Of a DNA stretch of 64,000 nt, positions 5,043 through 23,961 are shown one piece after another; the stretch's first letter is position 1; every line of letters begins with the position of its first letter. The stretch is from Nitrospirota bacterium. GTDB lineage: Bacteria > Nitrospirota > Thermodesulfovibrionia > Thermodesulfovibrionales > UBA6898. The translations under genes were made by a program, and so were the position numbers. Below the pieces are notes generated by a model. It was not told where the DNA came from and ran no database searches. It saw nothing but the letters and a program-made list of their open reading frames with translations. The stretch spans positions 702-64,701 of the forward strand of contig JACRLQ010000008.1 of NCBI GenBank assembly GCA_016215155.1, written 5' to 3'.

Positions 5043-5055
5043 CTGCGTCCTCCGG

Positions 5056-8520: not shown

Positions 8521-8572
8521 ATCTTCCCTCCTTCCGGGCTGTTTGGTTCGGACTGCGGCGGCATAACTTTTA

Positions 8573-8875
8573 TCATCCCTTCATCTCGTTCATTTCATCG
8601 ACATGCACGGTATTTTTGTTCTTGAAGAGGGCTATGATTATGGCAAGCCCTATCGACGCCTCGGCCGCCGCCACGGTGATGATGAAAAACACCAGCACGT
8701 GCCCCCTCAGGTCCTGAAGGTAGTGGCTGAAGGCGACCAGGCTTATATTGACCGCGTTCAGCATAAGTTCGAGGGACATGAACATTATGATTATATTTCT
8801 CCGGGTTAGGAATCCGAAGACACCTATCGAAAACACCGCCGCGCTTAGTATCAGATACCAGTTAAGTGGGACCAT
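8573..8875 (-). CDS. nuoK: NADH-quinone oxidoreductase subunit K
   Basis: 100 residues, three membrane helices. The two membrane Glu residues of the E-channel are present: E36 in [14 protein letters not shown] and E72 in [17 protein letters not shown]. The open frame extends much further upstream to 9295, but that extension is an overlapping frame of nuoJ. The start at 8875 gives the family length, and its A is shared with the nuoJ TGA stop. The tail ([10 protein letters not shown]) is slightly longer than average. Confidence 0.96.
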
Positions 8876-9396
8876 CAGTGGCTCCTCATCCGTTTTTTTG
8901 CAAGCACTATCGCCCCGACCACCGCTATCAGAAGGACAAGAGACGCGATCTCGAAGGGAAACAGGTACTCTGTGTAAAGGATCTGCCCCAGGACCTTCGT
9001 ATGCGTGACGCGCTGTATAAGGTCGACAGTGAAATTGCCCTTCGGGCCAAGGCTCACGGACAACATCGAGGCGGCAAGACCAACGAATATGCCGCCCGAA
9101 ATCAGCACGGCCGCCGGCCAGGACCCGACAAAGCGGGCCGACTCGAGCTCTTCTTTTAAGTTCAACAGCAGGACGACGAAAAGGAACAGCACGAGGATCG
9201 CCCCCGCGTAAACGATCACCTGTATGGCGGCGATGAACTCCGCGTTCAAAAATAGATACATGCTCGCTATATGGAAAAACAGAAGGAGCATCCACATGAC
9301 GCTATGGACCGGGTTTTTGCGGGTTATCACAAGCAACGAAAGGACTATGATCGCGAAAGCGAAATAGCCGAAAAATAACTGTGGCAGCATGCTCAT
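8875..9396 (-). CDS. nuoJ: NADH-quinone oxidoreductase subunit J
   Basis: Membrane subunit of 173 residues with five predicted helices. The helix 3 region ([25 protein letters not shown]) with the conserved VYAGAI segment, linked to the pi-bulge of complex I, is clear. Its start overlaps nuoI by 4 bases and its stop overlaps nuoK by one base. It ends in TGA, which shows that TGA is a normal stop in this operon. Confidence 0.96.
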
Positions 9397-9947
9397 TCCT
9401 TCCCCCTCTGCTTTATCCTGCTGAAGAGGGCCTGGTCTTCATGCGCCCTGAAGTCCTCGGAAAGCGGTCTCCAGAACTTGTTGTAATACTGCCTGCCCTT
9501 TTCTCCTGCAAAATATTTGTCCCAGTTTTCAAGGAGCCTTTCCTTTGTCATATAGAAGGCCTCCCTCTTATAACTCGAATACTCATAGTGCTCGCTGAGG
9601 GATATCGCGCCGAAGGGACAGGCCTCGACGCAGAACCCGCAGAATATGCACCTTACGAGGTCTATCTCATAACGCTCGACGATCTTTTTATTGTCGTCGC
9701 CTTCGGCGGTGTAAATATGGATGCACTGGGACGGGCAGTACGCGCCGCAGAGGCCGCACCCGACGCATTTCATCCTGCCTTCGTCGTCCTTGGCGAGGGC
9801 GTGGAGCCCCCTGTACCCGGCGGCCACGGTGGGTTTCACCATAGGATAACGCCTCGTCACCGGGGCCTTAAAGAGAGTCCGGAACGTAAGCGCGAGGCCC
9901 TTTAGGATCTCGGGGAAAAACAGGTATTTGATTATCGAATTACTCAT
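9393..9947 (-). CDS. nuoI: NADH-quinone oxidoreductase subunit I
   Basis: Peripheral 8Fe ferredoxin-like subunit, 184 residues. The two [4Fe-4S] motifs, CVGCGLCGAYCPSQCI and CIFCGFCVEACPFGAI, bind clusters N6a and N6b, which pass electrons towards N2 in NuoB. The C-terminal extension (from about residue 125) is somewhat longer than in E. coli and rich in charged residues. Directly abuts nuoH. Confidence 0.97.
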   Translation of the reverse strand: MSNSIIKYLFFPEILKGLALTFRTLFKAPVTRRYPMVKPTVAAGYRGLHALAKDDEGRMKCVGCGLCGAYCPSQCIHIYTAEGDDNKKIVERYEIDLVRCIFCGFCVEACPFGAISLSEHYEYSSYKREAFYMTKERLLENWDKYFAGEKGRQYYNKFWRPLSEDFRAHEDQALFSRIKQRGKE

Positions 9948-11006
9948 CTAGAGCCATCCCATTATTTTCAGCGTTCCGGTAAGGACGATATTAAAAAGCG
10001 CGATCGGGATAAGGACCTTCCAGCCGATGGCCATCAGCTGGTCATACCTGTACCGGGGCAGGGTCGCCCTTATCCAGTAATAAAAGAACATAAACGCGTA
10101 GACCTTCGCCAGGAATACGACCACCCAGAATATCGCCGGCACCTGGTAGAGAAACGGCAGCGCGTCCATTACGAATTTGGGGAGAGTCCAGCCGCCCAGA
10201 AAACAGATCGTGCCTATCGAAGACATTATGAGCATGCCCGTGTATTCGCCCAGGAAGAACATCGCGAACCGGAAGCCGCTGTACTCTGTAAAATATCCGG
10301 CCACGAGCTCGCTTTCGGCCTCGGGAAGGTCGAAGGGAAGCCTGTTCGTCTCTGCGAACATCGCCACCATGAAGACAAAAAACCCGATGAACTGCGGTAT
10401 CACGTAAGCTCCGGTCGGGTAGGCGAACTGGCCCTTTACGATATCTGTAAGATTGAGCGAGCCCGCCATGATCATCACTCCTACCAGGCTCAGGCCCATA
10501 GGTGTTTCATAACTTATGACCTGGGACGCCGAGCGGAGGCCGCCCAGGAACGCGTACTTTGAACCGGAAGACCAGCCCGACATCACTATGCCGTAGGCCC
10601 CCAGGGAGGACATCGCAAGGAGAAACAAAATTCCGACATTGATGTCGGCGACTACAAACCCGTCGAAAAACGGCAGCACCGAAAGAGACGTAAGCGCCGA
10701 GATAAAAAATATCACGGGGGAGAGGTAGAATATCGGCTTGTCCGCGTTGGCCGGGATGATGTCTTCCTTGAAAAAGAGCTTTATCCCGTCCGCAAAGGGC
10801 TGGAAAAGTCCGTACGGGCCTACCTCTCGGGGCCCCAGTCTGAACTGCATATGGGCGATGACCTTCCGCTCCCAGTAGGTCGCGTAGGCCACGTGAAGAA
10901 GGGTCACCGAAAAGACGACCACAATCTTAAGCAGGGCTATGAAAATTTCGCCTAAAATTCCAAAAGACCTGATAAAGGTCAGGGCCTGCATAAATAGATC
11001 GCTCAT
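9948..11006 (-). CDS. nuoH: NADH-quinone oxidoreductase subunit H
   Basis: Membrane subunit of 352 residues, eight helices, forming the quinone-channel junction. Visible family segments are YWERKVIAHMQFRLGPREVG, SGWSSGSKYAFLGGLRSASQ and the acidic loop FAETNRLPFDLPEAESELVA. Its ATG overlaps the nuoG TGA (ATGA arrangement). Confidence 0.97.
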   Translation of the reverse strand: MSDLFMQALTFIRSFGILGEIFIALLKIVVVFSVTLLHVAYATYWERKVIAHMQFRLGPREVGPYGLFQPFADGIKLFFKEDIIPANADKPIFYLSPVIFFISALTSLSVLPFFDGFVVADINVGILFLLAMSSLGAYGIVMSGWSSGSKYAFLGGLRSASQVISYETPMGLSLVGVMIMAGSLNLTDIVKGQFAYPTGAYVIPQFIGFFVFMVAMFAETNRLPFDLPEAESELVAGYFTEYSGFRFAMFFLGEYTGMLIMSSIGTICFLGGWTLPKFVMDALPFLYQVPAIFWVVVFLAKVYAFMFFYYWIRATLPRYRYDQLMAIGWKVLIPIALFNIVLTGTLKIMGWL

Positions 11007-13585
11007 GAACTCACCTTCCCGACAGACTCCACCGTGACCTCTGTCGCGCAGACGGCGGGCGCCTTTAAAACAGGGTCTAAAATATTTCCGGCAAGGCTTA
11101 ACGCCCCTTTGCCTTCAAAGATATTAGGCACGAGGACGACAGATGGTTCGACCTCCCCGTCAACGGAAAGCCGCAGTTCGATCGAATGTGATTTTGACGA
11201 TATCCTTACCATGTCACCGTCTTTGAGGGACAAGGCCCCGGCAGTCCCGGGGTCCATCCTGGCGACGGATTCAGAATACATCTTCACAAGGGCGGGAGAC
11301 TTCCGGCTCAACGTCCCGGAATGGAAGAGCACCCTGTCGATGCCGAGTGTGATCTTTCCGTCTGAGGCGGTCTCAGGCTTATTAAGAGGTATCTCGCCGA
11401 CAGCCCCCCTGAGCGGCTCGCCCTTATAGGGATAGATGACGTTTCCGGCTGCTATCTCATCGTAGGTAAGGTCCCTGTGGAGAGGGGAAATTTTTGTGAT
11501 CTCTTCAAACACTGCTTCTGAGCCGGCATAATTCATCCCAAAAGACATGTTCTTCGAGATCTCGGCGATTATGCGCCAGTCTTCCATCCCCGCCCTGTTG
11601 ACGGTTTTTCTTACACGCTGGATCCTTCGTTCCATATTTGTGAAAGTGCCGTCTTTTTCGCCCCAGCCGAGCGCCGGAAGGACGACGTCCGCGAGCCTGG
11701 CTGTCTCGGTAAGGAAGAGGTCCTGGACTACGAGGAACTCAAGCTTCCTCATGGAGGCCTCGACATTTGCGCCGTCCGGCAGGTTAAAGACCGTGTTTTC
11801 ACCCATGACATACATCGCCTTCAGATCACCTTTTCCGGCCGCCTCGATCATCTCAAAGATATTGAGGCCGGGCCTTTCGGATATCTTCGTCTTCCAGGCG
11901 TTTTCATACCTCTTTCTGAATTCAGCGTAACCGACAGGCCGGTATCCGGGGAGAAGGTCCGGGGCGCAGCCCATATCGAGCATCCCCTGTTCGTTTGCAT
12001 GGTCGGAAAGAAGATATAGCCTTCCGTTTATGAGATAGTTTATGGCGCATAAAAGGAAAAGCTTATAACCGCTCCCGGCTGACTGGAGCAGATCTTTGCC
12101 TATAACGACCGCGGGCGTACCCGAGGCGGTAAGCTTCCCGATGAAATCCGGATAGTCTTTTTCGGAAACATCGGCCTTCCCGGCCCCTGCCGCATCGACG
12201 ACGGTTTTGATCCGGCTTTCCAGTATAGTGTTCGAACCGGGCAGTCCTTTTCTGGATACAAGTTCCGAGACGATACGTTCCAACAGCGCCGTCTCACGGC
12301 CGCCGCCCGGGGTCAGCTCCACAGGGCTGAAATTCCTGAGCCCGCGGACATGCCCGATCGTAAGGACATTGCCGCCCTTCCTTGAGCAGGCCCTTATCTG
12401 GAGGCCCAGTATCGGATTTATGGTCGTGGGGTCTCCTCCCGCAACCAAAACGGTATCGGAATTCGAGAGCCCGGATATGATGTTTCCGGTCGCCCCCTGA
12501 CCGAAGATATTCTCTATGAACGCCTGAGCTCCGGCGTATCCCATTCTCGCCGTGCTGTCTATGTTGTTCGTCCCGATTACTGCCCTCATGAATTTCTGGA
12601 AGACATAATTGTCCTCGTTCGTACACCGCGGCGAGGCTATGCCGGCGATGGCGTCACCGCCGTTTCTGTCCTTTATCTCTGCCAGCTTTTTGGCGACAAG
12701 CCCGATCGCCTCTTCCCAGGTCGTCTCCTCCAGCACCCCGTTTTTTCTTACCATAGGGGAGGTCAGTCTTTCAGGGTCACCGACAAATTCATATCCGAAC
12801 CTGCCTCGGCTGCAGAGCATGCCGTTATTGACCGGGGAGCCTATCCTCGGCACTACCCTCTTGATCACGTCGTCCCTGACCTGCGCTATAACCGTGCAGC
12901 CGACAGCGCAATAAGGACATACCGTCTCTATGTTCTCTTTGACCTGCCAAGGCCTGTAGCTGTGCCTGTGGAGCCTCGACATGATCGCGCCGACCGGGCA
13001 TACCGAGACGCAATTGCCGCAGTACTCACAGTTATACCTGTTCCCCGAGAAGGGCTCGATATGGGAGTGCCCGCCCCTGTCGATGACACCTATGGCAGAG
13101 GCCCCCTGGACGCCCTCGCACATCCTGACGCACCTCGTACACATGACGCACCGCTCCATATTCCGGACGATCACCGGGTCCTGAAGATTTTCGGTCACAC
13201 GCCTTTTTTTCTCTTTGAACCGGCCTGTCGTCGGCCCGTATTTTTCAACCAGGTCCTGGAGCTCGCACTCGCCGGCCTTGTCGCAATACGGGCAGTCAAG
13301 GGGATGGTTAATGAGGAGAAATTCGAGTATGCCACGCCGCACATCGGCTATCGCCTCCGTCTCGGTCCTCACCGCCATGCCGTCGGTGACCATCAGCGTG
13401 CAGGCCGTCTGGAGCCTCGGCATCTTTTCGACCTCGACAAGACAGAGCCTGCAGCCTCCATATTTTTCGAGCTGCTCGTGCCAGCAGAGGGTCGGGATCT
13501 TTATACCCGCGGACCTCGCCGCCTCAAGCACCGTCACCGCCTTTTCGAGCTTTATCTCTTTGCCGTTAATATTTACCGTTATCAT
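11003..13585 (-). CDS. nuoG: NADH-quinone oxidoreductase subunit G
   Basis: 860 residues. The N-terminus has the [2Fe-2S] ligands (CWHEQLEKYGGCRLC...C), then the His-Cys3 cluster motif HPLDCPYCDKAGEC and two [4Fe-4S] motifs (CVMCTRCVRMC and CEYCGNCVSVCP). The N7-type motif CPYCAVGC...CSRGRFG follows, then a molybdopterin-oxidoreductase-like domain to the end. The site that holds Cys or Sec in formate dehydrogenase reads DSTARMGYAG, so the domain is not a formate dehydrogenase. Overlaps nuoH by 4 bases and starts 2 bp after nuoF. A paralogue lies at 23962-26433. Confidence 0.96.
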   Translation of the reverse strand: MITVNINGKEIKLEKAVTVLEAARSAGIKIPTLCWHEQLEKYGGCRLCLVEVEKMPRLQTACTLMVTDGMAVRTETEAIADVRRGILEFLLINHPLDCPYCDKAGECELQDLVEKYGPTTGRFKEKKRRVTENLQDPVIVRNMERCVMCTRCVRMCEGVQGASAIGVIDRGGHSHIEPFSGNRYNCEYCGNCVSVCPVGAIMSRLHRHSYRPWQVKENIETVCPYCAVGCTVIAQVRDDVIKRVVPRIGSPVNNGMLCSRGRFGYEFVGDPERLTSPMVRKNGVLEETTWEEAIGLVAKKLAEIKDRNGGDAIAGIASPRCTNEDNYVFQKFMRAVIGTNNIDSTARMGYAGAQAFIENIFGQGATGNIISGLSNSDTVLVAGGDPTTINPILGLQIRACSRKGGNVLTIGHVRGLRNFSPVELTPGGGRETALLERIVSELVSRKGLPGSNTILESRIKTVVDAAGAGKADVSEKDYPDFIGKLTASGTPAVVIGKDLLQSAGSGYKLFLLCAINYLINGRLYLLSDHANEQGMLDMGCAPDLLPGYRPVGYAEFRKRYENAWKTKISERPGLNIFEMIEAAGKGDLKAMYVMGENTVFNLPDGANVEASMRKLEFLVVQDLFLTETARLADVVLPALGWGEKDGTFTNMERRIQRVRKTVNRAGMEDWRIIAEISKNMSFGMNYAGSEAVFEEITKISPLHRDLTYDEIAAGNVIYPYKGEPLRGAVGEIPLNKPETASDGKITLGIDRVLFHSGTLSRKSPALVKMYSESVARMDPGTAGALSLKDGDMVRISSKSHSIELRLSVDGEVEPSVVLVPNIFEGKGALSLAGNILDPVLKAPAVCATEVTVESVGKVSS

Positions 13586-13587
13586 GG

Positions 13588-14850
13588 TTATCCCTGTGCC
13601 ATACAGGCCTTTGCCCTGATATGCTCCTCGAACTCAGGCCTGAAATGCTTTATGAAATTCTGCACAACGGACGCGGCCCCGTCACCGAGCGGACAGAACG
13701 TCTTGCCGATCATATTACCCGCGACAGACAAAAGCAGGTCAACATCGCCTTCCTGCCCCTGACCGGCTTCGATCCTCCCCAGGATGGACCTCAACCAGCC
13801 CGTGCCCTCACGGCAGGGAGTGCACTTGCCGCACGATTCATGCTCGAAGAATTTAAGCGCCCGGTAGCAGACCTTCACCAGACAGACGCTCTCGTCCATC
13901 ACGATGACCGCCCCTGAGCCGAGCATGCTGCCGTGTTTGGGCATATTGACGAAGTCCATCTGGCAGTCGATCTTGTCAGGGGGCAGCACCGGCGTGGATA
14001 TACCGCCGGGGATGACGGCCTTTAATTTTTTGCCGCCCTTGATGCCGCCGCAGTGGGTATAAATAATGTCTTTTAGATTGGTACCCATCGGGAGTTCATA
14101 GACCCCGGGCTTCTCCACATGCCCGCTTACGCAGTAGATCTTCGGGCCGGGGCAGTCCGGACTGCCGATCTTTGAATATGTCTCTCCGCCTATCTCGATC
14201 AGATACGGCAGGTTGGCAAGAGTCTCGACGTTATTTACGACCGTAGGTTTCGCGAACACTCCGACGTTTACAGGGAAAGGCGGCTTGATCCTCGGCTGTC
14301 CCTTGTCTCCCTCAAGGGATTCGATAAGGGCCGTTTCCTCTCCGCAGATATAGGCCCCCGCGCCCTGATGGACCGCCAGGTGGAACTTTACGCCTTTGCT
14401 CAGGATATTGTCTCCGAGGAATCCTTTATCGTATGCCTGTTTTATCGCCTTTTCGAGTATATGCTTTGCGGCCGGGTATTCCCCCCTCAGATAAATATAC
14501 CCATATTCAGCGCCGAGCGCGTAGCCGGAAATGGCCATACCCTCGATCAGCATATGGGGGTTCTTCTCCAGGATGGGCCTGTCCTTAAACGTTCCGGGCT
14601 CCCCCTCGTCCGCGTTACAGAGGAGATACTTCGGGGTCTTGGGGTCGCCGGAGGCGAACGTCCATTTCATCGCCACAGGGAACCCGGCGCCGCCGCGCCC
14701 CCTGAGTCCGGCCTTTTTGACCTCGTCGATAATGTCCTTCGGATTTCTGCCAAGGGCCTTCCCGAGGCTCTGGTATCCCCCGACGGACATATACTCCGCG
14801 ATATCTGCTGAGTTCGGGTTTTCTATATTTTTAAGAAGCACCTTTTCCAT
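13588..14850 (-). CDS. nuoF: NADH-quinone oxidoreductase subunit F
   Basis: NADH- and FMN-binding subunit, 420 residues. The flavin/NADH loops GLRGRGGAGFPVAMKW and CNADEGEPGTFKDRPIL are seen, with the N3 cluster motif ESCGKCTPCREGT and the distal Cys in GKTFCPLGDGA. It begins 5 bp after nuoE. In complex I it receives hydride from NADH and passes electrons through N3 to the chain in NuoG. Confidence 0.97.
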   Translation of the reverse strand: MEKVLLKNIENPNSADIAEYMSVGGYQSLGKALGRNPKDIIDEVKKAGLRGRGGAGFPVAMKWTFASGDPKTPKYLLCNADEGEPGTFKDRPILEKNPHMLIEGMAISGYALGAEYGYIYLRGEYPAAKHILEKAIKQAYDKGFLGDNILSKGVKFHLAVHQGAGAYICGEETALIESLEGDKGQPRIKPPFPVNVGVFAKPTVVNNVETLANLPYLIEIGGETYSKIGSPDCPGPKIYCVSGHVEKPGVYELPMGTNLKDIIYTHCGGIKGGKKLKAVIPGGISTPVLPPDKIDCQMDFVNMPKHGSMLGSGAVIVMDESVCLVKVCYRALKFFEHESCGKCTPCREGTGWLRSILGRIEAGQGQEGDVDLLLSVAGNMIGKTFCPLGDGAASVVQNFIKHFRPEFEEHIRAKACMAQG

Positions 14851-14855
14851 GGTTG

Positions 14856-15338
14856 TTACCTGTATTTCTCCAGGATCTCGTCGATATATTTTTCCGTCAG
14901 GTTTTCGTAGAAGTCATCGTTTATGAGCATGGCTGGGGCCGTGCCGCAGGCCCCGATGCATTCCATGATCACAAGTGAGAACCGGTTGTCAGGTGTCGTC
15001 CCGCCGGGCTCGAGCCCGTATTTGTTCTTGAGGAAATCGACCAGCCTCTCGGCCCCCAGGATCATGCAGGACACATTGGTGCAGAGCTGGACGACGTTCC
15101 TTCCCATCGGCCTGTTTTTATACATCGCGTAAAAAGTGCCGACCCCGCGCGCAATCGCCTTCGGGACACCCAGTATTTCGGACACAGCCTCGTAGGCCTC
15201 GGGAGAGAGCCAGCCGAATTCACGCTGGGCGACGTAAAGCGCCGGAAGCAGCGCCGCCCGTGCCGTCGGGTACTTGGCCCGTATCTCCTCGATCTCTTTT
15301 ATGGCTGCCTGACTGAACATTATATCCTTTATATCCAT
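14856..15338 (-). CDS. nuoE: NADH-quinone oxidoreductase subunit E
   Basis: Thioredoxin-fold [2Fe-2S] subunit, 160 residues. All four N1a ligands are present: CTNVSC (C-x4-C) and CIGACG (C-x3-C). The N-terminal helical part with REFGWLSPEAYEAVSEILGV and GVGTFYAMY is typical. It is paralogous to the C-terminal half of the receiver-fused protein at 21018-21938, which carries the same ligand spacing. Confidence 0.97.
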   Translation of the reverse strand: MDIKDIMFSQAAIKEIEEIRAKYPTARAALLPALYVAQREFGWLSPEAYEAVSEILGVPKAIARGVGTFYAMYKNRPMGRNVVQLCTNVSCMILGAERLVDFLKNKYGLEPGGTTPDNRFSLVIMECIGACGTAPAMLINDDFYENLTEKYIDEILEKYR

Positions 15339-15353
15339 CCCGAAATTTTCAAA

Positions 15354-16553
15354 TTATCTGTCGCATTCGCCGAGCACGATATCTATCGTGCCGATGTTGG
15401 CGATAACATCCGCGATAAGTCCGCCCTCACAGAGCCTGGGCATGACGGAGGCATGCACGAAAGACGGGGCCCTGACCCTCATCCTGTAAGGTTTTCCGGT
15501 GCCGTCGCTGACGAAATAGAACCCGAGCTCGCCCTTGGGCACCTCGGTCCCGACATAGACCTCACCCTCGGCTACGGACGGGCCTTTTGTGATCAAAATA
15601 AACTGGTGTATAAGGTGCTCCATGTCCTTCAGGATCATGTCCTTGGGAGGCAGGGTGAATTTCGGCGCGTCGGCCATCACCGCGCCTGCCGGAAGCTTCT
15701 CGACGCATTGCTTGATGATCCGGTTTGCCTGCCTCATCTCCTCGACCCTTACAAGATAACGGTCATAGCAGTCGCCTTTTTTCCCGACCGGCACATCGAA
15801 CTCGACCTGGTCGTAGGCATCGTAGGGCGCATATTTACGCACATCATAATCGACGCCGGAACCGCGCAGGGTCCCGCCCGTAAGGCCCCAGTTGATCGCC
15901 TCCTCCCTGGAGATGACGCCGATGTCAACCGTCCTGTCTTTCCATATCCTGTTTTCCGTGACGAGCGTCTCATAATCGTCCATCTTCGACGGGAAGTCAA
16001 GGACAAAATCATAGAGCTCATCCAGAAACTGCTGGGAGATATCGTTGCGCACTCCGCCCACCCTCGGGTAACTTACCGTCAGCCTCGCGCCGCAGAGTAT
16101 CTCGAAGAGGTCGAGTATCTTCTCCCTCGCCGCCATCGCGTGCAGAAACGGGGTGGTGGCGCCGATGTCAAGGACGTGTGTTCCGAGCCATATTATATGG
16201 CTTGACAGCCTGCCCATCTCGGCAACGATAGTACGGATGAACTTTGCCCTCGCAGGGGCCTCGATGCCGAAGAGTTTTTCGACGGCATTTACATAGCCGA
16301 CGTTGTTGTTCATCGAAGAGATATAATCGAGACGGTCACTGAGGGGAAGGGCCGCGAAGTAGGTCCTGTTTTCGCCGAGCTTTTCGACCCCGCGGTGAAG
16401 GTATCCGACATAGGGGGTGCATTTGACGACGGTCTCTCCGTTTAAGTGCAGGACCAGCCTCAGAACTCCGTGCGTGGCGGGGTGCTGAGGCCCAAGGCTG
16501 ATAGTCAGTTCCTTGGTCTCAAAGGTCTTGTCCGTGTCGTCGAGTTCCTGCAT
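15354..16553 (-). CDS. nuoD: NADH-quinone oxidoreductase subunit D
   Basis: 49-kDa subunit, 399 residues, which with NuoB forms the quinone site. Family segments are [33 protein letters not shown], and near the C-terminus [16 protein letters not shown]. It is separate from nuoC (in some bacteria the two are fused) and lies 17 bp downstream of it. Confidence 0.97.
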
Positions 16554-16570
16554 ATTCCTTTTCCGCTATT

Positions 16571-17113
16571 TTATTTCTGATACCAGTCGAATTCTTTGTA
16601 ACGCTTTGCCCTGTCGAGCACGTCGGTAAAGCCTTTCCATTCCATGTCAGGGCCGGGTCCCTTTAAGGGATAGTCCTTCCTCAGGGGATGGCCCTCCCAG
16701 TCCTCGGGAAGGAGTATCCTTCTTAAGTCGGGATGGCCCTTAAAGACGATGCCGAACATGTCGAAGCATTCGCGCTCGTGCCAGTCCACGCCTCTCCAGA
16801 CCGAGATGACCGAGTCAATGGACGGTTCCGACTCCTCCACCTCGGCCTTCAGCATGATCCTGTGGCGGTGTTCTACCGAGTAAAGATTGTACAAAACCGC
16901 GAAGCGGTTTTCCTTCTTCCCCTTGTAGTCAAGTCCGCAGAGGTCAACCAGGAAATCCATATAAAGTGAGGGGTCGTCATGGAGATAGCGGCAGATGTCG
17001 ACGATCCTGCCTTTTTTTAATGTGACGGAAACCTGCTCCCTGAATTCCCTTATATCAAGGACCTCTTCCGGAAACCTGTCTTTTATATTTTCAGCAATCG
17101 CTATTGGCTGCAT
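16571..17113 (-). CDS. nuoC: NADH-quinone oxidoreductase subunit C
   Basis: 30-kDa subunit, 180 residues. The signature [29 protein letters not shown] is followed by HPLRKDYP. It is unfused and starts 70 bp after the end of nuoB, the widest gap in the 5' half of the operon. No gene was seen in that gap. Confidence 0.96.
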
Positions 17114-17183
17114 TATACCCTAATCGTAAAAATTTTTTTTCTGTGCTTCTGTTTCTGAGACGTAACGGTCAAACCGGCTTCTG

Positions 17184-17711
17184 TTATCTCCAACGGCTCC
17201 ATCGGAACTGCTCGTCCCTGATCTTCTCCTGAAGTTTGATAATGCCTTCAATAAAGGCCTCAGGTCTGGGCGGACAGCCCGGGATGTAGACATCAACCGG
17301 CAGGAAGGTGTCACAGCCCTGCACGGTACTGTACGAATTGAATATGCCCCCGCTGTTGGCGCAGCTTCCGACCGAGATGACATACCGGGGTTCCGGCATC
17401 TGGTCATAGACCCGCCTGACTACCTCGGACATCTTCTTCGTAACTGTGCCGGCCACGAACATGAAGTCCGACTGCCGGGGGGAGCCCCTGGGAATAATTC
17501 CCATCCTGTCTAGATCATTGTGACTGGCATACACGGCCATCATTTCGATGGCGCATCAGGCCAGGCCGAACGTCATGGGCCAGAGCGACGAAACACGCGC
17601 CCAGTTTATAAGCTTGTCAAAAGAAGATATGATGACGTTCGGGGCAAGGATTCTCGTCCCCTCTTCCATTTCGACAAGCGACTGGGAACCGACTGTGGTT
17701 ATTAATCCCAT
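17184..17711 (-). CDS. nuoB: NADH-quinone oxidoreductase subunit B with in-frame TGA at an N2 ligand; candidate selenoprotein
   Basis: Reading from the ATG at 17711 (GGAGG 8 bases upstream, 10-bp overlap with nuoA) gives intact NuoB on both sides of one in-frame TGA at 17556-17558, codon 52. The context is [23 protein letters not shown], where the family has GLACCAIEMM, so TGA replaces the first of the two adjacent Cys ligands of cluster N2. The second Cys of the pair, the Cys in VGSCANSGG and the Cys in IPGCPPRPE are present. With the TGA read through, the protein is 175 residues, a normal length. If TGA is a true stop, translation could restart only at the MM after it, losing 56 residues and both paired ligands. 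The other 13 nuo genes are intact. Possible readings are selenocysteine, a sequencing error, or a real nonsense mutation. Confidence 0.85.
17521..17558 (-). promoter_or_regulatory. SECIS-like hairpin after the nuoB TGA
   Basis: On the coding strand the TGA is followed by 20 bases and then a 7-base loop (CGTGTAT, 17529-17535). The stem is TGATGGC (17536-17542) pairing with GCCA-TCA (17521-17528), with one bulged G at 17524. Spacing, loop size and a G at loop position 2 fall within the published description of bacterial SECIS elements as I recall it. A competing hairpin, GCCATC/GATGGC with a GAAAT loop, lies closer to the TGA. The same bases code conserved residues, so chance is possible. Confidence 0.4.
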
Positions 17712-18058
17712 ACAAAGGCCTCCTTTCTCCAGGCGTAGACATAGCCTACAAGGAGTATTATGATGAAAATTATCATTTCGATAAACGCGTAAAGCCCCAG
17801 CTGGTTAAAGACTACCGCCCAGGGGTAAAGAAAAACAGCTTCAACGTCGAAGACCACAAAAAGCATGGCGATGATATAAAACTTCACCGAAAACCTGACA
17901 TGGGGCTCCCCGACAGGGGCGTTTCCGGACTCGTACGGCATCAGCTTGTCGAAGTAGGGCCTTTTCAGCCTGAAGAGCTCGCCGACCAAGAGGGCGCCTA
18001 TTCCAAAGGCCGTCGCTACGGCAAGAAACACCATAACTGGCATATACTCAAATGGCAT
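17702..18058 (-). CDS. nuoA: NADH-quinone oxidoreductase subunit A
   Basis: Small membrane subunit with three helices. [44 protein letters not shown] contains the family Cys-loop region (here Ser replaces the Cys seen in many members) and the conserved Asp/Glu in [11 protein letters not shown]. The frame allows a start at 18073 or at 18058. I prefer 18058 (118 residues, [11 protein letters not shown]), because the predicted promoter would leave almost no leader before 18073. First gene of the nuo operon; its end overlaps nuoB by 10 bases. Confidence 0.93.
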
Positions 18059-18083
18059 AAAAGTTCCGGGCATGACGATATAA

Positions 18084-18216: not shown

Positions 18217-19797
18217 ATGCGAGTCGAAAAATCACTACACTCACTAACAGGCAAGCTGCTTCTGACCATCGGCACACTGATGCTCGTGGGCAGCACCCTC
18301 TTCTGGTATTTCCTTCTTAAACATCAGGAAAAAGAGCTCCTCGAGAACTCCGTAAAGTATGCCTACTCCTTCGTTGACTACGTAAAAAAGAGCACCAGAT
18401 ACGGCATGATGACGGCCAATAAGCTGCTCATCCAGCAGACCATCGAGGCCATAGGTTCCTCCGAAGGCATCAGGAATGTAAGGATCGTCGAGTGCACCGG
18501 CAGGATCGACTATTCATCCAATCCGGCGGACGTCGGAAAGACGCTCGACAAAAACAGACCCCCCTGTTCAGGCTGCCACGGTCCCGCGGGTAAAACCCGT
18601 GACTCCGCCATCGTATCTTTCAGCAAGGACTCCGATGACATGCGGGTACTGAAAATAATCCACCCGATCTATAATGAAAAGCCGTGTTACACCGCGGCCT
18701 GCCACTTCCACACCGAAGACAAAAAAATGCTTGGGATCATAGAGGCGGAGGTATCTCTGGCCCACCTTGACATGAGCATTAAAAACCAGGGCATCGCCAT
18801 AACAATTTATATATTGATTTTTCTTTTTGTCATCTCCGTGGCCCTCTGCACGATCCTCTGGAACCTCGTGTCGACCCCTGTGAGCCTCCTCAAGCAGGGG
18901 ATGGAACGGGTTGCCGGAGGCGACCTTGACTATACCCTGACCATCAATACGAGGGACGAAATGGGGGACCTGGCGAACGCGTTCAATGCCATGACGGCCG
19001 ACCTCAAAAAGGCCAAGAACGAACTCCTTGAGTGGGGCAATACCCTTGAGAAAAAAGTCGACGATAAGACCAGGACGATACAGATGGCGCAGGCCCAGCT
19101 GATCCATTCCGAAAAACTGGCGTCGCTGGGCAGGATGGCCGCCGGGGTCGCCCACGAGATCAACAGCCCGCTTACGGGCATCGTCACCTTCGGACACCTG
19201 CTGCTCAAACGGTTCCCTCCGGGTTCGCAGGAGCGCGAGGACGTCGAGGTCATCATCGAGCAGGCCAACAGGTGCTCGAACATAATAAAGGGGCTCCTGG
19301 GGTTTGCCAGGGCGTCCGCAGCCGAAAAAGCGCCGGTCAACATTAATGACGTGCTCGACAGGTCCCTGAACATCGTCCGGAACAAGGCCGATTTTTTCAA
19401 TATAAAACTGGTCACGGAATTCGATGATTCACTCAGACGCGTAAAGGCCGACGCCTCACAGCTGCAGCAGGTATTTCTTAACATGATAATGAACGCGGCC
19501 GACGCGGTGGAAGGCAAAGGGACGATATCGATAATCACGAAAAACGTGATCGAGGACAATACTGAATTCGTAGAGATAGAGTTCAGGGACACGGGCACCG
19601 GTATAAGCGAGGAGAACATAGAAAAGATTTTCGAGCCGTTTTTTACCACAAAACCGGTAGGCAAAGGCACCGGGCTGGGGCTTGCCGTGAGCCACGGGAT
19701 CGTGCTCGACCACGGAGGGAAGCTCCTGGTCAAAAGCAAGCCCGGCGAGGGCACAAGCTTTTTCGTAAAATTCCCGGCGGACAAGGAAAAACCATGA
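18217..19797 (+). CDS. Sensor histidine kinase with two c-type haem motifs in the periplasmic domain
   Basis: 526 residues. TM1 is at about 12-33 and TM2 at about 192-217, leaving a 160-residue periplasmic domain. This carries CSGCH (117-121) and CYTAACH (157-163), a standard CxxCH and a CX4CH c-haem attachment motif. A HAMP segment (about 212-264), a coiled linker, the H-box GVAHEINSPL (His 313), the N-box (FLNMIMNAADAV) and the G-boxes (DTGTGI, GKGTGLGLAV) follow, so the kinase core looks active. By family knowledge, haem in a periplasmic sensor reports redox state or a small ligand. It begins the plus-strand operon that continues to 26433, and its stop overlaps the next receiver gene by 4 bases. 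The haem reading rests on motifs only. Confidence 0.9.
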   Translation: MRVEKSLHSLTGKLLLTIGTLMLVGSTLFWYFLLKHQEKELLENSVKYAYSFVDYVKKSTRYGMMTANKLLIQQTIEAIGSSEGIRNVRIVECTGRIDYSSNPADVGKTLDKNRPPCSGCHGPAGKTRDSAIVSFSKDSDDMRVLKIIHPIYNEKPCYTAACHFHTEDKKMLGIIEAEVSLAHLDMSIKNQGIAITIYILIFLFVISVALCTILWNLVSTPVSLLKQGMERVAGGDLDYTLTINTRDEMGDLANAFNAMTADLKKAKNELLEWGNTLEKKVDDKTRTIQMAQAQLIHSEKLASLGRMAAGVAHEINSPLTGIVTFGHLLLKRFPPGSQEREDVEVIIEQANRCSNIIKGLLGFARASAAEKAPVNINDVLDRSLNIVRNKADFFNIKLVTEFDDSLRRVKADASQLQQVFLNMIMNAADAVEGKGTISIITKNVIEDNTEFVEIEFRDTGTGISEENIEKIFEPFFTTKPVGKGTGLGLAVSHGIVLDHGGKLLVKSKPGEGTSFFVKFPADKEKP

Positions 19798-20171
19798 GTA
19801 AAGGGAAAATTCTGGTCATCGACGATGAAGACATCGTCAGGACGAGCTGCAGCCGGACTTTAAGCCCTGAAGGCTATGAGGTGAAGCTCGTAAAAAGCGG
19901 CTTTGACGGGTTTAAACTCCTCGAAGAGGAGCAGTTCGATATTGTGCTGACCGACCTCAAGATGCCCGAGATCGACGGCATCGAGATATTAAGAAGGATA
20001 AAAGAGAAGTGGCCGGAGGTCGAGGTCATTATCATAACCGGATACCAGACGGTTGACACCGCCGTGAAGTCGATAAAACTGGGGGCTTTCGACTACCTCG
20101 AAAAGCCCTTCACTCCGGACGGCCTTATTTCATCGGTTACAAAGGCGATGGACCACAAAAAAACAGACTAA
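19794..20171 (+). CDS. Single-domain response regulator (CheY-like receiver)
   Basis: 125 residues, receiver domain only. The acidic pocket is IDDED near residue 10, the phospho-acceptor is D54 in VLTDLKMPEIDGIE, and the Lys in YLEKPFTP and the Thr in IITGYQT are present. No output domain. The 4-base overlap with the kinase makes it the likely direct phosphate acceptor, perhaps an intermediate for the two receiver fusions that follow. Confidence 0.93.
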   Translation: MSKGKILVIDDEDIVRTSCSRTLSPEGYEVKLVKSGFDGFKLLEEEQFDIVLTDLKMPEIDGIEILRRIKEKWPEVEVIIITGYQTVDTAVKSIKLGAFDYLEKPFTPDGLISSVTKAMDHKKTD

Positions 20172-20205: not shown

Positions 20206-20973
20206 ATGGAAAAGAAGGGGAAGATTTTAGTACTTGACGATGACCCCGTTGTAACGCTCAGCTGTAAAAGGATCCTCGGCGCCGAAGGGTATAACATAAT
20301 CACGACCAGCAGGGGCGAAGACGCCATCAAGAAAGTAGCCAATGAGGAATTCGACCTTCTTATCTCCGATGTGAGACTGCCCGACATCAATGGCATCACC
20401 GTCCTTCGGGAGACCAAGATAGTCCAGCCCAAGCTGGACGTGGTCATAATAACCGGCTACCCCACCCTCGATGACGCGAAGGAGTCCGTAAAACTCGGGG
20501 CCTTTGAATTCATAGAGAAACCCTTCACCCCGGAGTTCATGTTAAATGTCGCCAGGAAGCTCTTCGACAACAGGGGCTGGATATTGAGGAAGGCGTTCAT
20601 CGATGACTTCAGAAACGAGATCGTGTCGTTGAGGGACAGCGCCAATCCGGTCATCTTCTATAAGGAAGGGACCTGGGCGCGGCCGCTCAGCAATAATATC
20701 TGGGAAGTAGGGTGCGACGTGCGTTACTGGCTTTTAAGCGGCCAGCTGGCATTTATCGACATAGCAAACAATCTCCCTGCCGTCATGGCCGGCGAGTCGT
20801 TCGCCAAGATAGTCTCGGGAAGCGGGCAGGAAGACTCGCTTGTGTCTCCGATGACGGGGAGGGTAGTCGAGATCAACAAAGAGGCAAATCAGGCGATGAG
20901 CGCGCTTGTGCGGGACAACCTAAGTGAAGGATGGCTGCTCTGGCTTGCCAGGGTCGAACCTTTGAACATATAG
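20206..20973 (+). CDS. Receiver domain fused to a GcvH-like (lipoyl-type) domain lacking the lipoyl lysine
   Basis: 255 residues. Residues 1-125 are a receiver with D55 in LLISDVRLPDINGI and the EKPFTP motif. Residues about 150-250 resemble glycine-cleavage H protein: WEVGCDVRYWLLSGQLAFIDI, LPAVMAGESFAKI, SLVSPMTGRVVEINKEAN and NLSEGWLLWLARVEP line up in order with the H-protein barrel. Where H protein has ESVKAVSD with the lipoylated Lys, this protein reads SGSGQEDS, so the Lys is a Gly by eye alignment. Lipoylation is therefore unlikely, and the domain may act as a binding module. GGAGG lies before the ATG. GcvH-like proteins are known in other redox gene clusters (for example the lipoate-binding proteins of sHdr systems), but a receiver fusion is unusual. 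Confidence 0.8.
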   Translation: MEKKGKILVLDDDPVVTLSCKRILGAEGYNIITTSRGEDAIKKVANEEFDLLISDVRLPDINGITVLRETKIVQPKLDVVIITGYPTLDDAKESVKLGAFEFIEKPFTPEFMLNVARKLFDNRGWILRKAFIDDFRNEIVSLRDSANPVIFYKEGTWARPLSNNIWEVGCDVRYWLLSGQLAFIDIANNLPAVMAGESFAKIVSGSGQEDSLVSPMTGRVVEINKEANQAMSALVRDNLSEGWLLWLARVEPLNI

Positions 20974-21017: not shown

Positions 21018-21938
21018 ATGGCAGGAGGACCTAAAATATTGATAGTCGATGACGAACCGGTCGTCATCAAAAGCGCTGAACGGGTATTAAAAAGCGAAGG
21101 GTATGATATCGAAGGCGCCGGCGGCGGCCGCGAGGCTATCCTGAAGCTCGAAAAGGGCGGATATGACCTTGTCTTTACCGACCTCAAGATGCCCGAAGTC
21201 GACGGGCTGACGCTTATTAAATGGATCAAAAAGACCAACCCCCATATAGGGATTGTCATCATAACGGGATATCCCTCCCAGGACACTATAAGGGACGCGC
21301 TTGAACTGGGCATTATTGACTACGTGCCCAAACCCTTCACCCCGTCAGTACTGCTGGACGTCACGGAGAGGGCGGTGCAGTGGTCTGAGGGAAGAAAACC
21401 CAAAGAGGACAAAGCGGGCGAGGAGTTCCCCCCTGCCATGGCGGCAGAGCTTGACAGGGTCATAGGCGCCTTCAGGAATGTCCCCGGAGGGCTGATCCCG
21501 GTCCTCCAGAGGGCCCAGGAGATAGTAGGGTACCTTCCCCCGGTCGTACAAAAGAGGATCGCCAAGGGCCTGAACCTCTCCGAGGCCGAGGTCCACGGGG
21601 TAGTCTCCTTTTATTCCTTCTTTACGATGAAGCCGCGGGGCGACCATAACATCCGCGTATGCCTCGGCACCGCCTGTTATGTCAAAGGCATCGAGGGAGT
21701 GCTCGAAAAGATAGAGGAAAACCTTAAGGTGGGCATAGGAGAGACGACCGGGGACAGAAGGTTTTCCATCGAAGGCGTAAGATGTCTCGGCGCGTGCGGC
21801 CTTGCCCCCGTCATGATGATAGACCAGGAGACATACGGCGCCCTCACACCGGCCAAGGCCATAGGGGTGATCAAAGGCTTCGACCCTTCCGTCGGGGGCG
21901 CTGAAGTTACCGCAGCTGCGGCACAGGAGGAGGGTTAA
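21018..21938 (+). CDS. Receiver domain fused to a NuoE-like [2Fe-2S] subunit
   Basis: 306 residues. Residues 1-125 are a receiver with D55 in LVFTDLKMPEVDGL, a Thr in IITGYPSQD and KPFTP. From about residue 145 the protein is NuoE/HydC-like: LIPVLQRAQEIVGYLP, VHGVVSFYSFF, then the four cluster ligands in CLGTAC (C-x4-C) and CLGACG (C-x3-C), with LAPVMMID. It is thus a 24-kDa subunit of an NADH oxidoreductase joined to a signalling domain. GAGGAGG precedes the ATG, and the next gene (NuoF-like) begins one base after its stop. Phosphorylation of the receiver could gate assembly or activity; that is inference. Confidence 0.9.
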   Translation: MAGGPKILIVDDEPVVIKSAERVLKSEGYDIEGAGGGREAILKLEKGGYDLVFTDLKMPEVDGLTLIKWIKKTNPHIGIVIITGYPSQDTIRDALELGIIDYVPKPFTPSVLLDVTERAVQWSEGRKPKEDKAGEEFPPAMAAELDRVIGAFRNVPGGLIPVLQRAQEIVGYLPPVVQKRIAKGLNLSEAEVHGVVSFYSFFTMKPRGDHNIRVCLGTACYVKGIEGVLEKIEENLKVGIGETTGDRRFSIEGVRCLGACGLAPVMMIDQETYGALTPAKAIGVIKGFDPSVGGAEVTAAAAQEEG

Positions 21939-21939
21939 G

Positions 21940-23961
21940 ATGCCAAGACTGACTGTTGATGATATATTGAGGACAAAGGAAAGTCACTCGGCGGGCCTGG
22001 CCCTTAAAGAAGGCGGCTATACCGCGAAGGTCACCGTGCATATGGGGACCTGCGGGGTGGCGGCAGGCGCCAACCCTGTTATGGCCGCGCTCAGGGACGA
22101 GATGGAAAAAGCCGGCAGAAAAGATATATTCGTGACGACTTCAGGCTGCGCCGGGCTCTGCGCCCGTGAACCGCTCATAACCGTCGAGACCATTAACCAG
22201 CCGCCTGTAAGATACTGCGACATGAGCGATCAGAAGATGAGGGACATATTCGGTGAGCATATCATGTCCGGAAGGGCGGTGGACAAATACGCGCTCGTAA
22301 GCGGCACTGAAATAACCGATGCGCCCGTATCCGGCCAAAAGCCAGGCCCATCCGTTAAAACTGACGTCACAGGGCCGTCCGAAAAGCCGGCCATACCCTC
22401 CATAGAGGATACCCCCTTTTTCAAATATCAGGTGCTCCGGGTCCTCAGGAACAAGGGCGTCATCGACCCCGAGAGCATCGAAGACTATATCGCGCGCGAC
22501 GGGTACCAGGCAGTCGCGAAGGCCCTGACCCAAATGAGTTCTGAAGACATCGTAAAGGTGGTCAAGGACTCGGGGCTGAGGGGAAGGGGCGGGGCGGGGT
22601 TCCCCACGGGCATGAAGTGGGAGTTTGCCTCGAAGGTCCCCTCTGAAGTCAAATATATGTTATGTAACGGCGATGAAGGCGATCCCGGGGCCTTTATGGA
22701 CAGGTCCGTAATGGAGGCCGACCCTCACTCCGTCATCGAGGGTATGATCATCGGGGCAAAGGCGATCGGCGCCCATCACGGCTATATATACGTCAGGGCG
22801 GAATATCCCCTTGCCGTCAAACGTCTCCAGCTGGCGATCGACCAGGCTACGGAAAGGGGCCTCCTCGGGAAGAACATCCTGGGCTCGGGGTTCGACTTTG
22901 AACTGGGCATTTATCTCGGCGCGGGAGCCTTTGTATGCGGCGAGGAGACGGCCCTTATGAGGTCCCTTGAAGGAAAGCGCGGAATGCCCAGACCCAGGCC
23001 CCCGTTTCCGGCCCAGAAAGGCCTGTGGGACAAGCCCTCAGTGCTCAATAACGTCGAGACACTCGCTCAGATCGCCCCGATCATCTTAAACGGCGCGCAG
23101 TGGTACAGGTCCCTGGGCACGGAGAAAAGCTCCGGCACGAAGGTGTTCGCCCTCACCGGCGCTATAAGCAACGTAGGCCTGGTCGAGGTCCCGATGGGTA
23201 TCCCTTTAAGAAGGGTGATCTACGACATCGGCGGGGGCATAAAGAAGAAGGGAAGAAAATTCAAGGCCGTACAGCTCGGCGGGCCCTCCGGGGGCTGCAT
23301 ACCCGAGTCGCACCTCGACACACCCGTGACCTACGAGGACATAGTTGCGACCGGCGCTATCATAGGCTCAGGCGGAATGGTCGTCATGGATGACGCAAAC
23401 TGCATGGTAATCACCGCGAGGTTCTTCCTGGACTTTACGGCTGACGAGTCCTGCGGGAAATGTCCTCCCTGCAGGGTAGGCACGAAAATACTGCTGGATA
23501 TCCTGACGGACATAACCGCGGGCAGGGGAAAGGAAAGCGACATAGAGACCCTTGAGGACCTCTCAAGAGACATCATCGCGACCTCGCTCTGCGGCCTCGG
23601 GCAGACCGCGCCTAACCCTGTATTGACGACCCTCAGATATTTCAAACACGAATATGAAGACCATATAAAACATAAATGGTGCAGGTCAGGGGTCTGTCGT
23701 GACCTTGCCACGTTCAGGATAGACGAGAAACTCTGCAAGGCGTGCGGGGCCTGCCTGAGGGCCTGCCCTTCGAAGGCGATCGTCGGAGAGAAGAAGGTGC
23801 CCCACAAGATTATCCAGGAACTCTGCGTTCACTGCAGGACGTGTTTTGATACCTGCAAATTCAATTCGATAATGATACTGCCGGCAGGGTTTGAGGGAGA
23901 CCCCAATGAACTGCCCGGCGTGGGCGCAGCTGACGCCGGAGCAAAGAAGGGGGACGCATAA
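21940..23961 (+). CDS. NuoF/HydB-like NADH- and FMN-binding subunit with extra Fe-S domains
   Basis: 673 residues in three parts. Residues about 25-110 are a thioredoxin-like domain with C38, C70 and C74 (MGTCGV and SGCAGLC). Residues about 150-585 are the 51-kDa NuoF core, with GLRGRGGAGFPTGMKW, CNGDEGDPGAFMDR, ESCGKCPPCRVGT and TSLCGLGQTAP. Residues about 600-655 are a double [4Fe-4S] ferredoxin (CKACGACLRACP and CVHCRTCFDTCKF). This layout is that of HydB from NAD-linked [FeFe] hydrogenases and NADP-reducing hydrogenases. No hydrogenase catalytic subunit is encoded here. It is coupled to the NuoG-like gene, whose ATG follows its stop directly. Confidence 0.93.
   Translation: MPRLTVDDILRTKESHSAGLALKEGGYTAKVTVHMGTCGVAAGANPVMAALRDEMEKAGRKDIFVTTSGCAGLCAREPLITVETINQPPVRYCDMSDQKMRDIFGEHIMSGRAVDKYALVSGTEITDAPVSGQKPGPSVKTDVTGPSEKPAIPSIEDTPFFKYQVLRVLRNKGVIDPESIEDYIARDGYQAVAKALTQMSSEDIVKVVKDSGLRGRGGAGFPTGMKWEFASKVPSEVKYMLCNGDEGDPGAFMDRSVMEADPHSVIEGMIIGAKAIGAHHGYIYVRAEYPLAVKRLQLAIDQATERGLLGKNILGSGFDFELGIYLGAGAFVCGEETALMRSLEGKRGMPRPRPPFPAQKGLWDKPSVLNNVETLAQIAPIILNGAQWYRSLGTEKSSGTKVFALTGAISNVGLVEVPMGIPLRRVIYDIGGGIKKKGRKFKAVQLGGPSGGCIPESHLDTPVTYEDIVATGAIIGSGGMVVMDDANCMVITARFFLDFTADESCGKCPPCRVGTKILLDILTDITAGRGKESDIETLEDLSRDIIATSLCGLGQTAPNPVLTTLRYFKHEYEDHIKHKWCRSGVCRDLATFRIDEKLCKACGACLRACPSKAIVGEKKVPHKIIQELCVHCRTCFDTCKFNSIMILPAGFEGDPNELPGVGAADAGAKKGDA

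What the first reader, a model, noticed from the sequence alone, without database searches (positions are those of the whole stretch)
21018..21938. Receiver domain fused to a NuoE-type [2Fe-2S] subunit
The fusion keeps a full receiver pocket (D55, Thr, Lys) and all four [2Fe-2S] ligands. A signalling domain covalently attached to a respiratory-type electron carrier is an uncommon design, and suggests phosphorylation gates electron transfer or subunit docking.
Basis: partly seen in the sequence, partly recalled or inferred. Interest (0 to 1): 0.72.

Follow-up and report, generated by a model that had tools for sequence, protein, structure and literature searches.

The report
Complex-I-type electron module with phospho-switch domain
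In a little-known group of bacteria, one subunit of the machine that feeds electrons from NADH into respiration carries a built-in signal-receiving domain, which suggests that a redox-sensing kinase may switch that machine directly; this has not been tested at the bench.

Summary
ORF 21018-21938 (+, 306 aa) joins an intact receiver (D11, D12, D55, T83, K105) to a NuoE/HydC-type [2Fe-2S] subunit (C215, C220, C256, C260). It is no assembly artefact: 75 of 295 genomes sampled from the phylum carry the full-length fusion, all within one class (Nitrospirota). The neighbours change the reading: a BfuB-type flavin subunit (closest solved relatives are electron-bifurcating enzymes) and a NuoG-like subunit without the molybdenum-ligand Cys, behind a kinase with two haem-c motifs and two further receivers. 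In relative G050 the set sits inside the nuo operon, between nuoD and nuoH, and no canonical nuoF was found. The fused clade is sister to an unfused 'Nuo-Bfu' module. Best reading: a bifurcating-type NADH/ferredoxin input module for complex I whose BfuC subunit is a response regulator. Docking is well supported in G050, inferred here; phospho-gating is plausible but untested. Against: most fusion genomes also have canonical NuoF; 51 of 75 lack near linkage to nuoD; one lacks complex I; three have degenerate receivers. A separate receiver-BfuC fusion occurs in an Nfn-type cluster (L137). Calls: 5, 31, 32, 35, 43, 48, 49, 51, 52, 69, 77, 84, 85.

The parts
21018..21938 (+). RR-NuoE (RR-BfuC): receiver fused to NuoE/HydC-type [2Fe-2S] subunit, 306 aa
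   Evidence: best solved relative of the NuoE part is HydC 7t2r_C
21030..21383 (+). receiver domain (residues 5-122); phospho-acceptor D55 codon 21180-21182
   Evidence: Pfam Response_reg; conservation; AF2 fold
21384..21443 (+). flexible linker, residues 123-142
   Evidence: pLDDT under 50 at residues 131-134, pTM 0.52; length mostly 21-24
21444..21887 (+). NuoE/BfuC domain (residues 143-290); cluster Cys codons at 21660, 21675, 21783, 21795
   Evidence: Pfam 2Fe-2S_thioredx; 4 Cys in 63 of 63
18217..19797 (+). membrane sensor histidine kinase (HAMP, HisKA, HATPase_c)
   Evidence: overlaps the next gene by 4 bases
18565..18579 (+). haem-c type motif CSGCH in the presumed periplasmic sensor part of the kinase
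   Evidence: CxxCH in 23 of 24 cluster kinases; haem binding itself is inferred from the motif
18685..18705 (+). second haem-c-like motif CYTAACH (CX4CH) of the kinase
   Evidence: CX4CH in 23 of 24 cluster kinases
19794..20171 (+). single-domain receiver (CheY-like)
   Evidence: Pfam Response_reg E 2e-32
20206..20973 (+). receiver fused to a GCV_H-like domain without the lipoyl lysine
   Evidence: Pfam; pocket intact in 36 of 36 relatives, alignment to the genome's own GcvH
21940..23961 (+). BfuB/HydB-like flavoprotein: thioredoxin-like [2Fe-2S] region, FMN/NADH domain, C-terminal 2x[4Fe-4S]; B2-type ligands C488, T526, H575, C581, C586
23962..26433 (+). BfuA, NuoG-like, A1-A5 cluster Cys present, Mo-ligand Cys replaced by Gly349
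3615..18073 (-). divergent complex I operon with its own canonical nuoE (14856-15338), nuoF (13588-14850), nuoG (11003-13585), nuoD (15354-16553), nuoH (9948-11006), nuoI (9393-9947)
   Evidence: labels of the other nuo genes, and of nuoI, are recalled from sequence recognition

Best explanation
RR-NuoE is the BfuC ([2Fe-2S]) subunit of a BfuABC electron-bifurcating-type module (with F = BfuB and G = NuoG-like BfuA). The module can serve as the electron-input (N-) module of respiratory complex I, oxidising NADH and probably reduced ferredoxin together. A membrane kinase with two haem-c motifs in its presumed periplasmic part senses redox state and phosphorylates D55 of the fused receiver (and the two sister receivers). 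Phosphorylation changes how BfuC sits or moves on BfuB, or whether the module docks on complex I, and so turns this electron entry up or down. Shown: fusion, conserved pocket and ligands, conserved kinase/receiver neighbours, Bfu-type ligand set, place inside a nuo operon in G050. Inferred: docking on complex I in the window organism, kinase-receiver pairing, haem sensing, and any effect of phosphorylation.
For: Bfu identity: F matches bifurcating HydB 7t2r_B at E 6e-218 against 1e-115 for complex I NuoF, with the B2 ligand set by alignment; H575 in 60 of 60 F-like sequences; the NuoE part is closest to HydC. Complex I link: G050 (100% complete, 20 contigs) has nuoABCD-HK-RR-[RR-NuoE]-Fn-F-G-DRTGG-RsbT-DRTGG-PHP-HATP-nuoHIJKLMN on one strand, no canonical nuoF and one full-length NuoD. 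In G046 the set lies in the nuo operon beside nuoEFG. In the window it is divergent from nuo, RR-NuoE 5.7 kb from nuoD; 19 of 75 fusion genomes have it within 11 kb. BfuB of RR-Bfu is one clade (97) sister (91) to BfuB of unfused Nuo-Bfu operons of another class; the NuoE-domain tree agrees. BfuA groups with NuoG (86) and lacks the Mo Cys. Signalling: of 87 receiver matches in the genome (itself included), the closest to the fused one are its two cluster neighbours; haem motifs in 23 of 24 cluster kinases; low dN of the receiver. A second receiver-BfuC fusion with its own kinase, outside the fused clade in both trees. Precedent: a receiver protein bound to complex I in mycobacteria (PMC9274095, PMC11522691).
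Against: The window genome and, with it, 63 of 75 fusion genomes also have canonical NuoF, so the module is not needed for NADH entry there. In 51 of 75 genomes RR-NuoE was not within 30 kb of nuoD on the same contig (contig ends not corrected for). G156 has the fusion but no NuoD, NuoH or canonical NuoF (160 contigs). Complex I without canonical NuoF also occurs without the fusion: 9 of 14 control genomes with full-length NuoD, 8 of the 9 in one genus. BfuA of the unfused Nuo-Bfu groups with canonical NuoG, not with RR-Bfu BfuA. Three genomes (G176, G202, G204) keep degenerate receivers. The model gives no fixed receiver-NuoE contact (pTM 0.52), so it shows no route for gating. No activity, phosphorylation or complex was measured.
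Confidence: 0.45

Rival explanations
1. RR-BfuABC is a stand-alone soluble NADH/ferredoxin enzyme with an unknown third partner; it lies near nuo only because the two are co-regulated. The receiver still controls its activity.
For: Not within 30 kb of nuoD in 51 of 75 genomes; present in G156 without NuoD or NuoH; canonical NuoEFG coexist in the window; BfuA is its own lineage.
Against: Embedding between nuoD and nuoH with no canonical nuoF in G050; sister to unfused Nuo-Bfu by BfuB and NuoE; no Mo-ligand Cys in BfuA and no other candidate third-substrate subunit seen in the conserved gene set.
Confidence: 0.3
2. The receiver is mainly a docking or scaffold domain: it places the module on complex I or beside the kinase, and phosphorylation has little effect on electron flow.
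For: Domain retained after pocket loss in G176, G202 and G204; flexible linker; the mycobacterial receiver is described as a supernumerary subunit of complex I (PMC11522691 passage).
Against: All five pocket residues kept in 60 of 63 distinct fusions and a kinase of one family beside many of them.
Confidence: 0.2
3. The information runs the other way: the redox state of the [2Fe-2S] domain tunes the receiver and so the phosphate balance of the kinase and its other regulators (for example the NtrC-type one in relatives).
For: One kinase beside several similar receivers, with NtrC-type sigma-54 activators in several relatives.
Against: Receivers normally act as outputs (recalled); the NuoE domain keeps all ligands and the F and G partners of an enzyme.
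Confidence: 0.05

Closest known systems
Bfu family of electron-bifurcating enzymes, in particular predicted Nuo-Bfu (PMC9304861)
   Same: BfuB with FMN, 4Fe-4S and B2-type His/Cys ligands, BfuC, BfuA with A1-A5 Cys; nuo-operon setting in G050; BfuB sister to a Nuo-Bfu clade of the same phylum
   Different: BfuC carries a receiver; kinase and extra receivers in the cluster; BfuA lineage differs from that of unfused Nuo-Bfu; in the window the set is beside, not inside, nuo
Rv3143 / MSMEG_2064, receiver subunit of mycobacterial complex I (PMC9274095, PMC11522691)
   Same: a receiver attached to complex I, gene next to nuo in actinobacteria
   Different: a separate single-domain protein binding NuoD; here covalently part of the NADH-side [2Fe-2S] subunit
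HydABC bifurcating hydrogenases and NfnABC/StnABC (7t2r, 7q4v, 8oh5, 9n5u)
   Same: closest solved relatives of F and among the closest of the NuoE domain
   Different: no hydrogenase or Nfn catalytic part here; the solved BfuC chains are 150-189 aa, without room for a receiver
Canonical complex I NuoEFG
   Same: subunit folds; NuoG-like BfuA without Mo site
   Different: F has additional C-terminal 2x[4Fe-4S] and N-terminal [2Fe-2S] regions; canonical NuoEFG are separately encoded in the window

Membership tests
Bfu (BfuABC) family | BfuB with FMN 51K, SLBB, NADH_4Fe-4S and ferredoxin domains (InterPro set in PMC9304861) | tested here: met
   PF01512, PF10589, Fer4 pass their cut-offs; SLBB E 4e-4 but under its cut-off. 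Pfam stands in for the InterPro entries
Bfu (BfuABC) family | B2 cluster ligands incl. the His reported for bifurcating BfuB only | tested here: met
   C488, T526, H575, C581, C586 by alignment to 7t2r_B; H575 in 60 of 60. Thr at one position is the variant reported for about two thirds of BfuB
Bfu (BfuABC) family | BfuC with thioredoxin-like [2Fe-2S] | tested here: met
   PF01257; 4 Cys in 63 of 63
Bfu (BfuABC) family | couples NAD(H), ferredoxin and a third substrate | not testable with these tools
   no assay
Nuo-Bfu | BfuABC genes inside a nuo gene cluster | tested here: inconclusive
   met in G050 and G046; in the window adjacent and divergent
[quoted passage not shown]
   not met in the window, which has canonical nuoEFG; met in G050 for nuoF. 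Hence not filed as Nuo-Bfu for the window, only as possibly working like it
Response regulators | DD, phospho-Asp, Thr/Ser, Lys pocket | tested here: met
   D11, D12, D55, T83, K105
Response regulators | phosphorylated by a cognate kinase | not testable with these tools
   kinase next door; not assayed

The most novel reading that the evidence does not exclude
A respiratory complex I whose electron-input module is itself a response-regulator output: a haem-bearing kinase phosphorylates the BfuC subunit and thereby gates confurcation of NADH and ferredoxin electrons into the quinone pool. Receiver control of BfuC arose at least twice, also in an Nfn-type bifurcating enzyme (L137).
Probability: 0.35. 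Interest if true: 0.88.

Novelty: new variant of a known kind. Interest (0 to 1): 0.72.

Why it matters
Control of respiratory complex I by covalent signalling is, to my knowledge, poorly understood in bacteria, and I know of no described switch for Bfu enzymes. In the NiFe-Bfu structures BfuC is the part whose C-terminal domain moves between two electron paths (PMC9304861, section 6). A receiver built onto that subunit offers a natural handle: trap D55 in the on or off state and ask whether bifurcation, or docking on complex I, changes. It would also link periplasmic redox sensing to electron entry without transcription.

Tried and rejected
Assembly artefact: rejected, the fusion is in single-contig genomes and in 63 distinct sequences. 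Canonical NuoE of complex I: rejected, F and NuoE are closer to HydB/HydC and the canonical set is separately encoded. Formate dehydrogenase: rejected, the Mo-ligand position is Gly in 45 of 46 G sequences; the one exception has Cys, and L067 shows that motif. L137 as a transfer of the same fusion: not favoured, its BfuB and NuoE fall outside the fused clade, though on long branches that the tree tool flags. 'A complex I that lacks EFG must depend on RR-Bfu': rejected as an argument, since controls without the fusion also lack canonical NuoF. Paper searches listed no paper on a receiver-NuoE fusion; they cover open-licence PMC only, and most hits were seen only as listings. In one search some matches, and genomes without a match, were not listed. 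From I dropped 12 of 87 matching genomes before the counts of 75: nine of another class with the NuoE part only, and G054, G242, G213 with partial matches. Gene labels come from a simple non-overlapping ORF picker and BLAST to window or L050/L053/L037 proteins; it missed some genes (for example nuoI in L170, found), and loci L181 and L185 could not be read clearly. One search counted 31 ORFs, one of which (L055_5) is a receiver-HATPase and not a NuoE fusion; I use instead. Trees were quick searches without bootstrap.

Full report
ORF 21018-21938 (+) encodes 306 residues in one frame, with Response_reg at 7-114 and 2Fe-2S_thioredx at 147-287, both far above the Pfam cut-offs. The receiver pocket D11, D12, D55, T83, K105 and the cluster ligands C215, C220, C256, C260 are all there. 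The AlphaFold2 model has two well-folded domains (mean pLDDT 89.5) joined by a linker that is under 50 at residues 131-134, with pTM 0.52, so their relative position is not fixed. Foldseek's best matches are FdsG, NfnC and HydC chains (about 150 aligned columns), and a Spo0F receiver appears further down the list.

Distribution. In 61 genomes (own plus 60 relatives) matches over the whole fusion were found down to about 42% identity. In 295 genomes sampled across the phylum, 87 matched at E 1e-50 or better. Of these, 75 are full length, all in the same genus, family, order or class as the window; nine genomes of another class matched over the NuoE part only, and three more were partial.

Conservation. 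Among 63 distinct fusion ORFs (L137 included) the four Cys are invariant; all five pocket residues are kept in 60; L137 has Thr to Ser, L161 and L162 are degenerate. L163 is degenerate as well and fell below the search threshold. Between the window and six relatives the receiver has dN 0.05-0.09, the NuoE domain 0.10-0.19; dS is mostly saturated, so only dN is compared.

Neighbours. Upstream on the same strand lie a membrane histidine kinase, a single receiver and a receiver-GCV_H fusion; downstream F and G, with gaps of -4 to 44 bases. Among 87 receiver matches in the genome (itself included) the fused receiver's closest are its two cluster neighbours (39% and 41% identity, best E-values), so the three look like a related set served by one kinase; this is an inference. 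The kinase has CxxCH and CX4CH motifs between two presumed membrane helices; 23 of 24 cluster kinases have each motif. The GCV_H-like domain lines up with the genome's own GcvH, with Gly where GcvH has the presumed lipoyl Lys in the nine sequences printed, while its receiver pocket is intact in 36 of 36.

What kind of enzyme. F is far closer to electron-bifurcating HydB and NfnB chains (E 6e-218 and 4e-213) than to complex I NuoF (1e-115). By that alignment the B2 ligands of A. mobile BfuB (C438, C476, H525, C531, C536; PMC9304861, section 6 part 1) correspond to C488, T526, H575, C581 and C586; H575 is kept in 60 of 60 F-like sequences, which include unfused Bfu proteins. G passes the NuoG model's cut-off and not that of the formate dehydrogenase model; its presumed A1-A5 Cys are kept in 46 of 46 (one extra Cys is not) and the Mo-ligand position is Gly in 45 of 46. 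So the set has the cofactor plan of BfuABC, and BfuA is NuoG-like and probably not itself a molybdenum enzyme.

Link to complex I. In the window the set is divergent from a nuo operon that has its own nuoEFG. RR-NuoE lies within 11 kb of nuoD in 19 of 75 fusion genomes and within 30 kb in 24 (positions). In G046 the genes are inside the nuo operon next to nuoEFG. In G050 they sit between nuoD and nuoH on one strand, with DRTGG, RsbT-like, PHP and HATPase genes, followed by nuoH, nuoI, nuoJ, K, L, M and N (nuoI, J, K named by recognition); no canonical nuoF is in that genome and it has one full-length NuoD. I take this as the strongest single piece of evidence that RR-BfuABC can be the input module of complex I. 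The BfuB tree puts the RR-Bfu clade (24 rows, support 97) as sister (91) to BfuB of operons in another class where BfuC is unfused and the genes lie in nuo operons; the NuoE-domain tree agrees (90 and 89). Schut and colleagues predicted such Nuo-Bfu enzymes in Nitrospirae (PMC9304861; I read the abstract, section 4 part 1, section 5 parts 1-2, section 6 part 1 and found passages; a search of its main text for 'receiver' gave none).

Results against that link. Canonical NuoF is present in 63 of 75 fusion genomes. Of the 12 without it, 11 have NuoD; in eight of these (G030, G045, G176, G190, G202, G302, G247, G192) nuoD is followed by nuoH, directly or after one other ORF, with no nuoEFG (G192), in G050 RR-Bfu lies between, and two (G052, G194) could not be read. 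But lack of canonical NuoF also occurs in 9 of 14 control genomes that have full-length NuoD and no fusion (20 controls searched), eight of them in one genus. G156 has the fusion but no NuoD, NuoH or canonical NuoF. In the BfuA tree RR-Bfu BfuA is one clade (100) beside the NuoG group (86), whereas the unfused Nuo-Bfu BfuA groups with canonical NuoG (96), so BfuA has a different history from BfuB and BfuC.

A second fusion. L137 (title: Proteobacteria bacterium isolate C4.bin.25) has receiver-NuoE (335 aa), a BfuA-like protein, two proteins with Nfn-type domains (DHODB_Fe-S_bind; Fer4_20 with Pyr_redox_2), BfuB, a Cache-domain kinase and two receivers. Its BfuB and NuoE fall outside the fused clade (long branches). 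The same subunit, BfuC, thus seems to have gained a receiver twice. This is one contig of one MAG.

How it may work. [quoted passage not shown] A receiver on BfuC could bias that motion or the docking of the module. A receiver on complex I has a precedent: Rv3143/MSMEG_2064 binds NuoD and is described as a supernumerary subunit (PMC9274095, abstract and passages; PMC11522691, passages; the structure paper itself was not held). I rate: Bfu-type module about 0.93, docking on complex I about 0.65, phosphorylation by the neighbour kinase about 0.8, an effect of phosphorylation on activity or docking about 0.55. These are judgements.

Novelty. Searches of open-licence PMC listed no paper describing a receiver fused to NuoE, HydC or BfuC; subscription papers were not searched. 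I class it as a new variant of a known kind.

Noticed in passing
20206-20973: Receiver fused to a GCV_H-like domain without a lipoyl lysine; found beside RR-NuoE in many relatives, pocket intact in 36 of 36. Role unknown.
   Followed up: partly
18217-19797; L083, L088, L089, L094: The haem-motif kinase has relatives with NtrC-type partners on contigs titled beta-, gammaproteobacteria, Sterolibacterium and Zixibacteria, with no Bfu genes labelled nearby.
   Followed up: partly
L137:225-1232: Second receiver-NuoE fusion in an Nfn-type Bfu cluster with its own kinase and two receivers.
   Followed up: yes
L055:5476-6327: A receiver fused to an RsbT-like HATPase domain in the same cluster as RR-NuoE.
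   Followed up: partly
L050:13777-15648 and others: DRTGG, RsbT-like, DRTGG, PHP and HATPase genes accompany RR-Bfu in many relatives but were not seen in the window cluster.
   Followed up: partly
L179, L180, L182, L183, L186, L187, L189, L190, L176: nuo operons with nuoD followed by nuoH and no nuoEFG in several genomes.
   Followed up: partly
L161, L162, L163: Fused receivers that have lost pocket residues yet are retained.
   Followed up: partly
21940-23961: In many relatives a separate 127-aa protein (Fn) precedes a 600+ aa F; in the window both are one 673-aa protein, shorter than their sum.
   Followed up: no
L168, L169: The window genome has two further Bfu-like clusters, one beside NfnA/GltD-like genes (the Nfn labels are recalled).
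   Followed up: no
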